Source of the DNA: SAR202 cluster bacterium bin87
GTDB lineage: Bacteria > Chloroflexota > Dehalococcoidia > Lucifugimonadales > UBA3495
Length of the DNA stretch: 64,000 bases
Direction: 5' to 3'
NCBI GenBank assembly: GCA_002238825.1
Contig: MPNC01000001.1
Coordinates: 372,001 to 436,000 of the forward strand
The position numbers were made by a program, and so were the translations under genes. The notes under the pieces were generated by a model. The model did not search any database, was not told the origin of the DNA, and saw only the letters and a list, made by a program, of their open reading frames with translations. Positions 11,815 through 18,227 of this stretch are shown piece by piece. The stretch's first letter is position 1. The number at the start of each line of letters is the position of its first letter.

Positions 11815-12180
11815 CTAGGATTCCGGGTAGGTTAGCTTCATCAGGACGTGGCGGCGGTTCTGGGTGTAGGGGCGCACCTGCTCGGGCCAGCGGCCGGAGT
11901 CGACGGCCTCGGCCCACTCCGGGCTGGTGAGGACATCGGGGCTCTCGATTTGGTAGACCGCGTGGTGCTTGGGTGTGCCGGGAATTTCGATTTCTTGGAC
12001 CTGCCCGCCCATTGCCATCAGGAGGCGGTGGGTCTCGTAGCGGGTGACGCCCACGACGCCGGGGGTTTGGTTGAGCAGCGGGCAGTGCTCGGTGTTGTAG
12101 ACCTCGTTGAACAGGGCTTCACGGTCAGGGTCGATGTCCATGCTGGCGATGAACAAGTACTTGGAATGCAGTTCGGCCAT
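11815..12180 (-). CDS. Small dimeric alpha/beta-barrel-like protein, unknown function
   Basis: This 121-residue protein starts with HSKYLFIASMDIDPDREALF followed by NEVYNTEHCPLL and TPGVVGVTRYE. The pattern is seen in EthD/DUF4286-type dimeric ferredoxin-like barrels, in which a TEH motif near residue 30 and the GV..V.R strand are typical. The start at 12180 was chosen because GGAGGT lies 7 bp upstream; longer in-frame extensions run into the TPR gene and look unlike protein. It sits last in a minus-strand group after a TPR protein and a TPP enzyme. A role in modifying or degrading a small carbonyl compound is possible but not shown. Confidence 0.7.
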   Translation of the reverse strand: MAELHSKYLFIASMDIDPDREALFNEVYNTEHCPLLNQTPGVVGVTRYETHRLLMAMGGQVQEIEIPGTPKHHAVYQIESPDVLTSPEWAEAVDSGRWPEQVRPYTQNRRHVLMKLTYPES

Positions 12181-12916: not shown

Positions 12917-14563
12917 TTAGAAAGCGCGGCGGTGAGAGTAGTTGATCTCCTCGTTGGTGATGAACTCGAGGAGCACGGCGTTTCCGTCTTCGTTCTGCTG
13001 GCGGGCCCGCTGGAACGCGGGGATAATCTCGTTGGGGTCGGTGACGCGCTCGGCGTAGCCGCCCATGGCGCGACCCAGATCGGCGTAGTTGCCGCCCAGA
13101 TCGCGGGTGCTATAGAGCTCGTGGGAACGCTGCATGGCGTTGGTTTCCACGGCCATGGTGGAGTTGTTGAGCACGACGGTGGTTATGGGTACATTGCTGC
13201 GCACGGCGGTCTCAAAGTCGAGGCCGACCATGCCGAAGGCGGCATCACCCATGAAGTTGACGCACATCTTGTCCGGGTCGGCCAGCTTGGCGCCGATCAC
13301 GAGGCCAAGGCCGGTGCCCAGGCCGTGGGACTTCCCCCACCCCAGGTAGGTGCGCGGGCCGCCGGAGCGGTAGAACGGCGTGATCTGGTCGCGAGGACTG
13401 CCCGAGTCGTGGGTGATGATGGCCTCGCTGGCGGGGACGGCCTTCTGGAAATCGGTGATGACGCGGTATGGGTTGACCAGCGGGCCGGCGTCGGTGGTCT
13501 TGTGCTCCCACTCGGCGAGCCAGGCGTCCCGAACCGAGGCGATCTCGCCGGTGACCTCAGCGTTGTTGCGGCGGCTGTCACCGACGATCTCGCGGCAGGC
13601 TTCGATCATCTGGCGCAGGGCCAGTTTGGCATCGCCGATGACCGGGAACTGCACGTCGTAGTCCTTGTTCAGGTCGCGCGGATCGTTGGTGTTCTGGATC
13701 AGCGTGCGGCCGGCGGGCAGGTTCATGGACATGCCGTGCTTGGTGAAGCTGGAACCGACGCCGAAGATGACGTCGGAGCGGCGCATGAAGTGGTACACCG
13801 TGCCGGACATCACGCCGGAGCCACTGCCCAGAGCCAGGGGATGCTGCTCGGGGAATCCGCTCTTGCCCAGCAGGGTGGTCATGACCGGAACCGACAGGAG
13901 TTCGGCCAACTCGACCAGCTCGTCGGTGGCCTCGGCGTACATCACGCCCTGGCCGGCGTGGATCACCGGATAGGTGGCGGAGCACAGGGCGCGGGCGGCG
14001 GCCTCGATGTCGTCAGGGTCAGCCTGGGAGGCGGACCGACGGACGTTGCCGCCCCAGTAGAAGGCCTCCTCGGACACTTCCTCGAGGGCAACGTCGGCGG
14101 GTATCTCGACCATGGACGGGCCGGGTCGTCCGGTGTACAGGGCGTTGACGGCTCGGCGCATGACTTGGCTGGTGCTGCCGGACAGGTTCAGCCGTTCGAG
14201 GTGCTTGGTCACGCTGGCGAAGCTCTCGATGGAGTCGAACATGGGGAAGACGCCCTGGCGTTCGCGCGGGTGGCCCAGAGGCAGCAGGAGGATGGGCACG
14301 GAATCGGAGAAGGACGTGGCAACGCCCGAGTATGCATTCTCGGCGCCAGGGCCGTATTGCATGGCGAAAACGCCGGGCGGGCGGCCGTTGGTGATGCGGC
14401 TGTAGCCGTCGGCGATACCGACGCCCACGCGCTCCTGGCGGCAGATGATGGGCCGGATTCCGGCGGCGGCGCAGGCTTCGATAACCGGTGTGGTGGGGAA
14501 GCAGGAGAGGTATTTCACTCCCTCTCGCTTGAGAATTTCGGCGATGGCATCGATGGTTTGCAC
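12917..14563 (-). CDS. Thiamine-diphosphate-dependent enzyme, acetolactate-synthase-like
   Basis: This 548-residue protein has the three-domain layout of the POX/acetolactate synthase family. The N-terminal pyrimidine-binding domain has the cofactor-activating Glu in RQERVGVGIADGYSR (about residue 44) and the YGPGAENAYSG segment. A central domain spans about residues 190-330. The C-terminal PP-binding domain has GDAAFGMVGLDFETA followed by LNN near residue 445, which provides the Mg-diphosphate ligands. The usual GDG is GDA here. It could be an acetolactate synthase, oxalyl-CoA decarboxylase or another 2-oxo acid lyase. The lack of ilvN or ilvC nearby argues against a dedicated branched-chain role. 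Confidence 0.85.
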   Translation of the reverse strand: MQTIDAIAEILKREGVKYLSCFPTTPVIEACAAAGIRPIICRQERVGVGIADGYSRITNGRPPGVFAMQYGPGAENAYSGVATSFSDSVPILLLPLGHPRERQGVFPMFDSIESFASVTKHLERLNLSGSTSQVMRRAVNALYTGRPGPSMVEIPADVALEEVSEEAFYWGGNVRRSASQADPDDIEAAARALCSATYPVIHAGQGVMYAEATDELVELAELLSVPVMTTLLGKSGFPEQHPLALGSGSGVMSGTVYHFMRRSDVIFGVGSSFTKHGMSMNLPAGRTLIQNTNDPRDLNKDYDVQFPVIGDAKLALRQMIEACREIVGDSRRNNAEVTGEIASVRDAWLAEWEHKTTDAGPLVNPYRVITDFQKAVPASEAIITHDSGSPRDQITPFYRSGGPRTYLGWGKSHGLGTGLGLVIGAKLADPDKMCVNFMGDAAFGMVGLDFETAVRSNVPITTVVLNNSTMAVETNAMQRSHELYSTRDLGGNYADLGRAMGGYAERVTDPNEIIPAFQRARQQNEDGNAVLLEFITNEEINYSHRRAF

Positions 14564-15676: not shown

Positions 15677-16873
15677 TTGAATAACGGAGCCCTGGCCGGC
15701 GTCAAGGTGGTGGACCTGACCCATCACATCGCCGGCCCTTACGGTACCAAGCTGTTGGCCGATTTCGGGGCCGATGTATTGAAGATCGAGCGGCCGGGGG
15801 GTGACCCCGGACGGCGGTTGCCGCCGTTCTACCACGACCAACCGGACGCCGAGAAAAGCCTGCCGTTTCTCTACCTGAACACCAACAAGCGCAGCATCAC
15901 CCTGAACCTCAAGTCGGAGACCGGCCGCTCGATCCTGATGGACCTGCTCTCCGACGCGGACGCGGTGGTAGAGAACTTCGCGCCGCGGGTGATGCCGTCG
16001 CTGGGCCTGGATGCGGACACGCTGCGAAAGCACAACCCGAAGCTGGTGGTTGCGTCCGTGTCCAATTTTGGGCAGACCGGACCCTGGCGGGACTTCCGTG
16101 CGACTGAGATCGTCGAATACGCGTTGGGTGGGCTGATGTACATCTTCGGCGCGTACGACCGGGAGCCGTTGAAACACGCGCTGCACCAGGCCCAGTTCAA
16201 GGCCGGCACCAACCTGGCGTCGGCCACGCTGATGGCGTTGTACCACCAGCGGCTCACCGGGCAGGGTCAGCGGGTGGACGTGTCGATCCAGGAAAGCATT
16301 GCCTCGGCGCTGCGGGACGTTACCAACAACTACACCTACACCGGAGCCGTGCGGCGCAGGCAGCCCAACCACACGGGAGACCTGACGCGGCTGCGGGCGG
16401 TTTCCGACGGTTACGTGTTGCCCAACCCCGGCATGGGGGCGACGCTGGACTGGAAGGTGATGGTGGATTTCCTGGAAGCGCCGGAACTGGATGACGAGCG
16501 GTTCGACAACGCGTCGGCGCGGCTGGAAAACGCGGAGGCGCTGGGCGATATCCTGGACCAGATTTTCGCGACGAAGCAGAAGCAGGAAATCTTTTACGCG
16601 GCCCACCAGAAGAGGTTCATCTACGGCGTGATCGATTCCCCTGAAGAGACGGTGGACAACCCGCAGATACAGGCCCGGGGTTACTACGTGCCGGTGGAAC
16701 ATCCTGACCTGGGCGAAATCACATTCCCCGGAGCGCCCTTCCTGATGTCGGGATCGCCGTGGGCCGTGACGGACGCCGCGCCGAGACTGGGCGAGCACAC
16801 GGGAGCGGTGCTTGGAGATATGGGTTACAGCGCGCAGGAACTGACCTGGCTACGGGCTTCGGAGGTGATCTGA
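15677..16873 (+). CDS. CaiB/BaiF family CoA-transferase paralogue lacking the catalytic Asp
   Basis: This roughly 398-residue class III CoA-transferase has the N-terminal VKVVDLTHHIAGPYGTKLLADFGADV and KIERPGGDP motifs and a VDVSIQES segment. In this family a catalytic Asp carries the acyl and CoA intermediates. Aligned without gaps to the next gene, which has TDYTAG, this protein reads AQFKAG, with Gln (codon 16193-16195) at the Asp position. It may therefore be a non-catalytic partner subunit. A TTG at 15677 behind GGGGGG was chosen; another TTG at 15662 is also possible. Only 1 bp separates its stop from the next start codon, so the two are surely co-expressed. Confidence 0.85.
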   Translation: MNNGALAGVKVVDLTHHIAGPYGTKLLADFGADVLKIERPGGDPGRRLPPFYHDQPDAEKSLPFLYLNTNKRSITLNLKSETGRSILMDLLSDADAVVENFAPRVMPSLGLDADTLRKHNPKLVVASVSNFGQTGPWRDFRATEIVEYALGGLMYIFGAYDREPLKHALHQAQFKAGTNLASATLMALYHQRLTGQGQRVDVSIQESIASALRDVTNNYTYTGAVRRRQPNHTGDLTRLRAVSDGYVLPNPGMGATLDWKVMVDFLEAPELDDERFDNASARLENAEALGDILDQIFATKQKQEIFYAAHQKRFIYGVIDSPEETVDNPQIQARGYYVPVEHPDLGEITFPGAPFLMSGSPWAVTDAAPRLGEHTGAVLGDMGYSAQELTWLRASEVI

Positions 16874-16874
16874 C

Positions 16875-18227
16875 ATGGCCGGTCCGTTGGAAGGGGTTCG
16901 CATCGTGGAGATGGGTCAGCTCATCGCCATACCGTCGGCAATGAAGTGGATGGCCGACATGGGCGCGCAGGTGATCAGGCTGGAGTCGGTTCAGCGGCTG
17001 GAGAGCTACCGCACGGATTCGCTGTACCACAATGACGTGGACGGCGAGTTCTGGAACCGGGGCGCCAACTTCTACGAACAGAACCGGAACAAGCTGGGGC
17101 TGACCCTGGATCTGAGCCGGGATGAGGGCCGGGAAGTGCTGCGCGACCTGATCGCGGTTGCCGACGTGTTCGCCGAGAATTTCACGCCTCGGGTTGTCCG
17201 CAATTTCGGGCTGGAATACGAGGACCTGCGCAAGATACGGCCGGACATCATCATGGTGTCCTCCACCGGCTACGGGTTCGAAGGGCCGTGGGCGAACTTC
17301 GGCGCCACCGGGCCGGCCACTGAAGGGGCGGCGGGCCTTGCGTATATCACGGGGTACCGCGACGGCGGGCCGGTGATGTCCGAAATACCATTCACGGACT
17401 ACACGGCCGGCGAGCACACCGTGGCGGCGGTGATGCTGGCGCTGATGCACCGGCTGAACACCGGTCAAGGGCAGTTCATCGACGTGTCGCAGACGCAGAC
17501 ATGCTCCGCCACGATCCCGGAGGCGCTGCTGGACTGGACGGTCAACGGACGGATGCCGGAACGGGTCGGCAACGAGGACCCGGCGATGTCACCCCACGGT
17601 TGCTATCCGTGCGCCGGCGACGATCGGTGGATCGCCATCGCGGTGGACAGCGACGACGCCTGGCTGGGTTTGTGCCGCGTCATGGGCCGTGCCGATTGGG
17701 CGGCGGACGAGCGGTATGCGGACGTGCTCAGCCGGATTCGGTATCGAACGGAACTGGACAAGATGTTGGGATTCGAGACGCGGAATCACGACAACCACGA
17801 ACTGATGGCCCAGCTGCAGGCCGGGGGCGTGGCGGCCGGAGCGGTTGCCGACAGCGAAGACCTGCTGTTCAACGAACACCTGAAAGAGCGCCGCTTTTAC
17901 GAAATTGTGGAGCACGACGACGCCACCGGAATGCCGCCGCTTCCCTATGCCGGCCGGCCGTGGAAACTGTCGGACACCCCGTCGGTTCCGCCCAAGCCGG
18001 CCCCGATCATGGGCCAGCACAACCGGGACATCCTGGCCGGCCTGTTGGGCAGAGCGGATGGGGACATCGCCGCGCTGGAAGAGGCACAGGTCATCGGGTT
18101 CGCTCCGCTGTCGCCGCGCGGGGTGCGTCGGCCGTCGCTGGACGAACAGGTCCGGCAGGGCCGGATGCAGCGGTACGAAACGGATTACGCCGAGCGCGTC
18201 GCGAAGTGGTTTGGGATCAACCGTTAA
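16875..18227 (+). CDS. CaiB/BaiF family (class III) CoA-transferase
   Basis: This 450-residue protein has the class III signature: VRIVEMGQLIAIPSAMKWMADM at the N-terminus, NRNKLGLTLDL near residue 70, ADVFAENFTPRV near 97, and the catalytic Asp175 in PFTDYTAGEH. It is about 45 residues longer than its upstream partner because of a charged C-terminal tail. GGAGGTGATC precedes the start codon. Family members form interlocked dimers, and in Chloroflexus a pair of neighbouring CaiB-type genes encodes a heteromeric succinyl-CoA:malate transferase, so a heteromer is plausible here. The acyl donor and acceptor are unknown. Confidence 0.9.
   Translation: MAGPLEGVRIVEMGQLIAIPSAMKWMADMGAQVIRLESVQRLESYRTDSLYHNDVDGEFWNRGANFYEQNRNKLGLTLDLSRDEGREVLRDLIAVADVFAENFTPRVVRNFGLEYEDLRKIRPDIIMVSSTGYGFEGPWANFGATGPATEGAAGLAYITGYRDGGPVMSEIPFTDYTAGEHTVAAVMLALMHRLNTGQGQFIDVSQTQTCSATIPEALLDWTVNGRMPERVGNEDPAMSPHGCYPCAGDDRWIAIAVDSDDAWLGLCRVMGRADWAADERYADVLSRIRYRTELDKMLGFETRNHDNHELMAQLQAGGVAAGAVADSEDLLFNEHLKERRFYEIVEHDDATGMPPLPYAGRPWKLSDTPSVPPKPAPIMGQHNRDILAGLLGRADGDIAALEEAQVIGFAPLSPRGVRRPSLDEQVRQGRMQRYETDYAERVAKWFGINR

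What the first reader, a model, noticed from the sequence alone, without database searches (positions are those of the whole stretch)
15677..18227. Tandem CaiB-type CoA-transferases where the first has lost its catalytic Asp
Gap-free alignment over about 25 residues puts Gln (AQFKAG, codon 16193-16195) of the first protein opposite Asp175 (TDYTAG) of the second. The catalytic Asp is essential in class III CoA-transferases. The genes are 1 bp apart. Neighbouring CaiB genes form a heteromer in Chloroflexus (SmtA/SmtB). A heterodimer with one active and one inactive centre is suggested.
Basis: partly seen in the sequence, partly recalled or inferred. Interest (0 to 1): 0.6.

Follow-up and report, generated by a model that had tools for sequence, protein, structure and literature searches.

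The report
Two-gene CoA-transferase, one half dead
Two adjacent genes encode the two halves of a CoA-swapping enzyme of which only the second keeps the catalytic residue; this matches an enzyme type already solved by crystallography (BbsEF), but this genome carries sixteen such half-dead pairs, which makes a little-studied design look systematic.

Summary
Protein A (15677-16873) has Gln173 (CAG, 16193-16195) where protein B (16875-18227) has Asp175; one base separates the genes. No Asp or Glu lies within nine residues of Gln173. A's best solved relative is BbsE and B's is BbsF, the subunits of benzylsuccinate CoA-transferase BbsEF. In BbsF the matching residue, Asp178, carries the CoA adduct in PDB 9fol; BbsE has Tyr171. 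A and B fall into two well-supported clades with BbsE and BbsF. All 28 orthologous pairs keep Gln in A and Asp in B. The genome has 49 matches to this family: all 16 adjacent or fused pairs have exactly one Asp; the unpaired copies keep it. Two things go beyond it: between paralogues the dead partner's small domain is hypervariable while the live partner's is conserved, suggesting that the dead subunit sets specificity; and A-B is linked to a ThDP enzyme (PRK06154) in 17 of 21 neighbourhoods. The substrate is unknown. No glycyl-radical enzyme was found, so it is not the toluene pathway.

The parts
15677..16873 (+). Gene A: catalytically dead (E-type, BbsE-like) class III CoA-transferase subunit, 398 aa
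   Evidence: Pfam PF02515 328.8 bits; best PDB hit 9fn0 chain A = BbsE, 4.5e-57; E clade in trees; Foldseek best hit 9fn0_A
16193..16195 (+). Codon CAG, Gln173 of A, in the place of the catalytic Asp
   Evidence: read in sequence; alignments
16874..16874 (+). 1-bp spacer between the stop of A and the ATG of B
   Evidence: read in sequence; the same 1-bp gap in most same-genus orthologues
16875..18227 (+). Gene B: catalytically live (F-type, BbsF-like) subunit, 450 aa
   Evidence: Pfam PF02515 341.8 bits; best PDB hit 9fn0 chain B = BbsF, 5.5e-59; F clade
17397..17399 (+). Codon GAC, Asp175 of B, equivalent to BbsF Asp178
   Evidence: read in sequence; numbering computed; 9fol title 'D178-CoA adduct'
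12917..14563 (-). Conserved neighbour: ThDP-dependent enzyme of family PRK06154 (NF004807), function unknown
   Evidence: 720.2 bits against a cut-off of 607; near A-B in 17 of 21 ortholog neighbourhoods
11815..12180 (-). Conserved neighbour: about 120-aa protein of no Pfam or NCBIfam family; sits between the ThDP gene and A in several relatives
   Evidence: start of this gene inferred from its orthologues

Best explanation
A and B are the two subunits of a heteromeric class III CoA-transferase of the BbsE/BbsF kind. They very probably form the interlocked dimer typical of the class. B (F-type) is the catalytic half: Asp175 attacks the donor acyl-CoA, forms the mixed anhydride, then the aspartyl-CoA thioester, and passes CoA to the acceptor acid. 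A (E-type) has Gln173 in that position, cannot form the anhydride, and is a pseudo-subunit. In this fold the small domain of one chain covers the active site in the large domain of the other, so A's small domain should complete B's live site and help to choose the substrate. Shown here: sequence, clade membership, conservation of Gln and Asp, lopsided domain conservation, natural fusions in relatives. Inferred: physical assembly, the chemistry (from BbsEF and Frc), and A's role in specificity. The substrate is unknown; linkage to an enzyme of the ThDP lyase/decarboxylase superfamily suggests activation of an acid for CoA-dependent C-C bond chemistry.
For: A best matches BbsE and B best matches BbsF by sequence; by fold A's best Foldseek hit is 9fn0_A, and B scores 9fn0_D second within a tied group. 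B Asp175 = BbsF Asp178, the residue named in the CoA-adduct structure 9fol; BbsE has Tyr171. Trees: E clade of 50 rows with A and BbsE (SH-aLRT 100), F clade of 49 rows with B and BbsF (99); E separation 100/99 again in a careful tree. Mirror-tree correlation of the two halves r = 0.75, 0 of 2000 permutations as high. Gln and Asp kept in all 28 orthologous pairs. Own genome: 16 of 16 adjacent or fused pairs have one Asp and one non-Asp, 0 of 15 other full-length copies lack it (Fisher p = 0.0006). Natural E-F and F-E fusions. Domain asymmetry: between paralogues E small domain 22.6% identity against F small 38.6%, E large 42.2% against F large 36.0%. The small domain of the other chain lines the pocket in the homologue MCT (PMC9196870).
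Against: No experiment or complex model shows A binding B; a fused A-B model was not accepted by the folding tool. Some E/F pairs elsewhere keep both Asp (L103, L160, L173, and the split pair C49:190141/194485 in this genome), so the dead state is common in the kind but not definitional. The E clade keeps the N-terminal CoA-loop motif (P35, G38, R42) of which the F clade has largely lost P35 and G38, the opposite of what a simple 'A does nothing with CoA' view predicts. Both AlphaFold models have low confidence in the loop just before the site.
Confidence: 0.88

Rival explanations
1. A is an active enzyme that uses another residue (a shifted Asp or Glu, or an internal-anhydride route) rather than a dead subunit.
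For: An internal-anhydride route without a positioned catalytic acid was proposed for the intramolecular enzyme ThnP (PMC11659651). Five E-type relatives have Glu at the column.
Against: No acidic residue within nine positions of Gln173; the same helix position is kept in the model. The residue in E-type proteins is chemically arbitrary (Q, Y, W, F, G, L, H, S, E, A), as expected for relaxed constraint, while the partner keeps Asp in every F-clade row sampled (49 of 49).
Confidence: 0.05
2. A and B are two separate homodimeric enzymes made from one operon, B being active and A having another job such as CoA-thioester binding or regulation.
For: Most class III enzymes are homodimers; A keeps CoA-loop motifs.
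Against: Parallel histories of the two clades (r = 0.75), natural E-F and F-E fusions and the BbsEF crystal structures with both chains in one entry.
Confidence: 0.06
3. The pair is a true BbsEF for anaerobic toluene degradation.
For: Nearest solved relatives are BbsE and BbsF.
Against: Identity is only about 31-32%; no PFL-like glycyl-radical enzyme (the family of benzylsuccinate synthase) was found in the genome; no bbs-type genes beside the pair, which is flanked by ABC permeases, a ThDP enzyme and leuCD-like genes.
Confidence: 0.02
4. The pair replaces formyl-CoA transferase in an oxalate-type pathway with the linked ThDP enzyme acting like oxalyl-CoA decarboxylase.
For: A class III CoA-transferase beside a 548-aa ThDP enzyme recalls Frc with Oxc; the ThDP protein hits oxalyl-CoA decarboxylase/2-hydroxyacyl-CoA lyase structures at about 1e-42.
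Against: Both proteins score far under the formyl-CoA transferase cut-off (225.7 and 185.2 against 442 bits); the ThDP enzyme belongs to PRK06154, not to an Oxc model. Its best structure hit is BbmA, and acetolactate synthases score as well as Oxc.
Confidence: 0.1

Closest known systems
[quoted passage not shown]
   Same: Two class III subunits; E subunit without the Asp (Tyr171), F subunit with it (Asp178, CoA adduct); A and B fall in the E and F clades.
   Different: About 31-32% identity; no toluene-pathway genes; different residue (Gln) at the dead site; substrate unknown.
[quoted passage not shown]
   Same: Named as a family III enzyme with two gene products in PMC11659651.
   Different: Sequence not compared here; its catalytic-residue state was not checked.
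Succinyl-CoA:malate CoA-transferase SmtA/SmtB of Chloroflexus
   Same: Neighbouring class III genes forming a heteromer, from memory.
   Different: Not retrieved or compared here; whether one subunit lacks Asp is untested.
DddD, DMSP CoA-transferase/lyase
   Same: From memory, two CaiB-type domains in one chain with one catalytic Asp; four fused genes of this genome (760-889 aa) have one Asp-less and one Asp domain.
   Different: Fused; those four genes fall outside the E/F clades; identity to DddD not tested.
Homodimeric Frc, CaiB, SUGCT
   Same: Same fold (SUGCT Z 37.4 to the model of A) and the chemistry expected of B.
   Different: Both subunits identical, two live sites.

Membership tests
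Class III (family III/Frc) CoA-transferase | CoA_transf_3 domain and interlocked-ring fold | tested here: met
   Pfam 328.8 and 341.8 bits over nearly the whole profile; best fold matches are all of this class
Class III (family III/Frc) CoA-transferase | Catalytic Asp equivalent to Frc Asp169, protein A | tested here: not met
   Gln173: A belongs to the fold family but not to its catalytic members
Class III (family III/Frc) CoA-transferase | Catalytic Asp equivalent to Frc Asp169, protein B | tested here: met
   Asp175
BbsE/BbsF-type heteromeric CoA-transferase | One gene in the E clade, one in the F clade | tested here: met
   Trees
BbsE/BbsF-type heteromeric CoA-transferase | Asp only in the F subunit, at the position of BbsF Asp178 | tested here: met
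   9fol title
BbsE/BbsF-type heteromeric CoA-transferase | Tandem genes | tested here: met
   1-bp gap, kept in relatives
BbsE/BbsF-type heteromeric CoA-transferase | Physical E-F complex | not testable with these tools
   Only indirect: fusions and co-evolution
BbsEF proper (toluene pathway) | Occurs with bss/bbs genes | tested here: not met
   No PFL-like gene in the genome; other neighbours
BbsEF proper (toluene pathway) | Transfers CoA from succinyl-CoA to (R)-benzylsuccinate | not testable with these tools
   needs an assay
Formyl-CoA transferase (Frc) | NCBIfam cut-off of PRK05398/TIGR03253 | tested here: not met
   225.7 and 185.2 bits against 442 (PRK05398), 223.3 and 176.6 against 504.2 (TIGR03253)
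SmtA/SmtB | Orthology to the Chloroflexus subunits | not tested
   sequences not obtained
DddD | Fused two-domain CoA-transferase/lyase | tested here: not met
   A and B are separate genes

The most novel reading that the evidence does not exclude
Heteromeric class III CoA-transferases form a large radiation in which the partner with the dead site has become a dedicated specificity subunit: its small domain, which should cap the live site of its partner, diverges strongly between paralogues, while the live subunit's own small domain over the dead site is frozen. Loss of the Asp in the E clade happened several times, and a similar half-dead state arose in fused genes and in a clostridial pair outside that clade.
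Probability: 0.45. Interest if true: 0.6.

Novelty: new member of a known kind. Interest (0 to 1): 0.42.

Why it matters
CoA-transferase expansions are among the most prominent features reported for the SAR202 group of Chloroflexota (PMC5395668), which this genome resembles, and are read there as many separate broad-range enzymes. If one half of every paired copy is a non-catalytic partner, simple gene counts overstate the number of activities by up to a third in this genome, and annotating A-type genes as active CoA-transferases is wrong. The radiation also gives dozens of natural E/F pairs in which to test how a dead enzyme half steers the specificity of a live one.

Tried and rejected
Aligning single E proteins with fused ones put them on the F half and that alignment was dropped. 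The idea of a universal rule that pairs always have exactly one Asp was rejected: 4 of 19 named pairs and one split pair of this genome keep both. Toluene pathway rejected. A single origin of all Asp-less halves could not be firmly rejected for the fused group (AU p = 0.052); the same test for the clostridial pair did not finish. Within the orthologues alone, A's small domain is not more variable than B's (66% against 60.5% identity): the asymmetry is a between-paralogue effect. Papers on the BbsEF structure, SmtAB and SptAB themselves were not held in the library, so whether their authors already describe a pseudo-subunit could not be read. SmtAB could not be compared.

Full report
WHAT IS THERE. 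The window lies in a 4.96-Mb genome (67 contigs) at G000:C32:372001-436000. Gene A runs 15677-16873 and gene B 16875-18227 on the plus strand with a single base between them. Both are full-length class III CoA-transferases (PF02515, 328.8 and 341.8 bits) and are 28% identical to each other. In a gap-free stretch A Gln173 (CAG, 16193-16195) faces B Asp175 (GAC, 17397-17399).

IS THE ASP REALLY GONE. Aligning A and B with five solved relatives puts Gln173 in the catalytic column. The nearest acids in A are Glu163 and Asp161, ten and twelve residues away. AlphaFold models of A (pLDDT 80.9, pTM 0.79) and B (79.3, 0.77) place Gln173 and Asp175 near the start of the same long helix.

WHAT IT IS. By sequence the best solved relative of A is chain A of 9fn0 and that of B is chain B of 9fn0, the two subunits of benzylsuccinate CoA-transferase BbsEF (4.5e-57 and 5.5e-59). 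The second entry, 9fol, is titled 'D178-CoA adduct'; Asp178 is the BbsF residue aligned with B Asp175, and BbsE has Tyr171 there. By fold A's best Foldseek match is again 9fn0_A; by VIA-align Z the human SUGCT and BbsF chains head the list, so fold alone does not single out BbsE. B scores SUGCT and 9fn0_D about equally.

CENSUS IN THE GENOME. PF02515 has 49 matches in the genome. I fetched all of them and read the catalytic column. Sixteen pairs are adjacent on one strand or fused in one ORF (fifteen tight, one with about 0.7 kb between). Each has exactly one Asp; the other half has Q, Q, Y, Y, G, G, W, W, S, S, S, C, L, H, F or E. None of the 15 other full-length copies lacks the Asp (Fisher p = 0.0006). 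Two of these fifteen, C49:190141 and C49:194485, turned out to be an E-type and an F-type gene, both with Asp, separated by a short-chain-dehydrogenase-like gene. One further copy on contig 65 has an odd half-domain order and was left out.

ORTHOLOGUES. Relatives of A at 49-95% identity (loci L057-L084) all have Gln in A and, directly downstream, a B with Asp: 28 of 28. They occur in all 13 other same-genus genomes searched, in 13 of 22 same-family ones and in two of the same order. More distant A-like proteins of the phylum have Q, L, E, F or Y, always beside a partner with Asp.

NAMED SAMPLE. A scan of species genomes with an A-type alignment gave 80 named loci. After regrouping two gene triplets (L127, L147) there are 19 pairs: 14 dead-live, one live-dead, four with both Asp (L103, L159, L160, L173), none with neither; 79 of 80 unpaired domains have Asp, the exception lying near the edge of its fetched stretch. 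Pairs of E/F type occur in Chloroflexota, delta- and betaproteobacterial groups, Lachnospiraceae and Paenibacillus. One-Asp pairs are therefore common but not universal.

HISTORY. In a 134-row tree built without the catalytic columns, A groups with BbsE in an E clade (50 rows, SH-aLRT 100) and B with BbsF in an F clade (49 rows, 99). Where gene order is reversed, the Asp-less half is still the E-clade member. A careful 65-row tree repeats the E clade (100/99); inside it a nine-row branch (100/99) mixes Asp-keeping and Asp-less members, so loss needs several events or regains (5 changes on the tree, at least 3 forced by well-supported branches). The two halves share their history: distance correlation r = 0.75 over 48 pairs, none of 2000 permutations as high. 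Four fused genes of this genome and a clostridial pair (L168) fall outside both clades; an independent origin is favoured, but for the fused group the test is borderline (AU p = 0.052).

LOPSIDED CONSERVATION. Over the same 48 E/F pairs, mean pairwise identity is 42.2% for the E large domain, 22.6% for the E small domain, 36.0% for the F large domain and 38.6% for the F small domain; F small exceeds E small in 98.7% of comparisons (bootstrap interval of the difference 14-18 points). Lone enzymes show 40% and 27%. In the homologue MCT the pocket lies between the large domain of one chain and the small domain of the other (PMC9196870). If the same holds here, the variable E small domain covers the live F site and the constant F small domain covers the dead E site. 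Within A-B orthologues A's small domain is not especially variable (66%), as expected if it is fixed for one substrate. This is inference; the link to specificity is untested.

AN UNEXPLAINED DETAIL. The E rows examined (36 of the 50) keep the N-terminal loop motif (P35 33/36, G38 36/36, R42 36/36) that ordinary enzymes have, while the F clade has largely lost P35 and G38. Dead subunits keeping this motif and live ones losing it may mean that the E site still binds CoA, or that the loop serves the interface.

CONTEXT. A and B stand alone on their strand, between a Uma2-type gene and a leuC/leuD-like pair. A ThDP enzyme of family PRK06154 (window 12917-14563 minus; 720 bits, cut-off 607) lies near the pair in 17 of 21 neighbourhoods, and in several relatives the ThDP gene, a 120-aa protein without a known family, A and B run in one direction. 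Some relatives add an acyl-CoA-ligase-like and a ketopantoate-reductase-like gene (read from sequence). The ThDP protein resembles BbmA, oxalyl-CoA decarboxylase, 2-hydroxyacyl-CoA lyase and acetolactate synthase structures. Since PRK06154 has five copies here, linkage rather than mere presence is the signal. No glycyl-radical enzyme was found in the genome.

VERDICT. What is worth following is the scale of the phenomenon and the lopsided conservation. Papers consulted: PMC5395668, PMC6306507, PMC9196870, PMC9813914, PMC10818641, PMC11659651, PMC13416013. Statements about SmtAB and DddD, and the essential role of the catalytic Asp in Frc, rest partly on my own knowledge.

Noticed in passing
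G000:C65:151165-152649 (L055, minus strand): A 494-aa CoA_transf_3 protein whose profile matches come in the order 163-330, 1-207, 316-371: an odd half-domain plus N-terminal half.
   Followed up: partly
G000:C49:190141-195588 (L041): An E-type and an F-type CoA-transferase that both keep the Asp, split by a short-chain-dehydrogenase-like gene.
   Followed up: partly
window 12917-14563 (-), 11815-12180 (-): ThDP enzyme PRK06154 and a 120-aa protein of no Pfam family conserved beside the A-B pair; PRK06154 itself has five copies in this genome.
   Followed up: partly
G000:C28:60603-62894, C28:109428-111710, C49:307570-310038, C27:95604-98273: Four fused two-domain CoA-transferases (760-889 aa) with Ser or Cys in the first domain and Asp in the second, outside the E/F clades; possibly DddD-like, not tested.
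   Followed up: partly
L168:4784-7194: A clostridial tandem pair whose Gly and Asp halves are sisters in the tree, i.e. apparently a separate and younger case of the same half-dead design.
   Followed up: no
E and F clades (window 15677-16873 and 16875-18227): Asp-less E subunits keep the N-terminal CoA-loop motif (P35, G38) which the Asp-bearing F subunits have largely lost.
   Followed up: no
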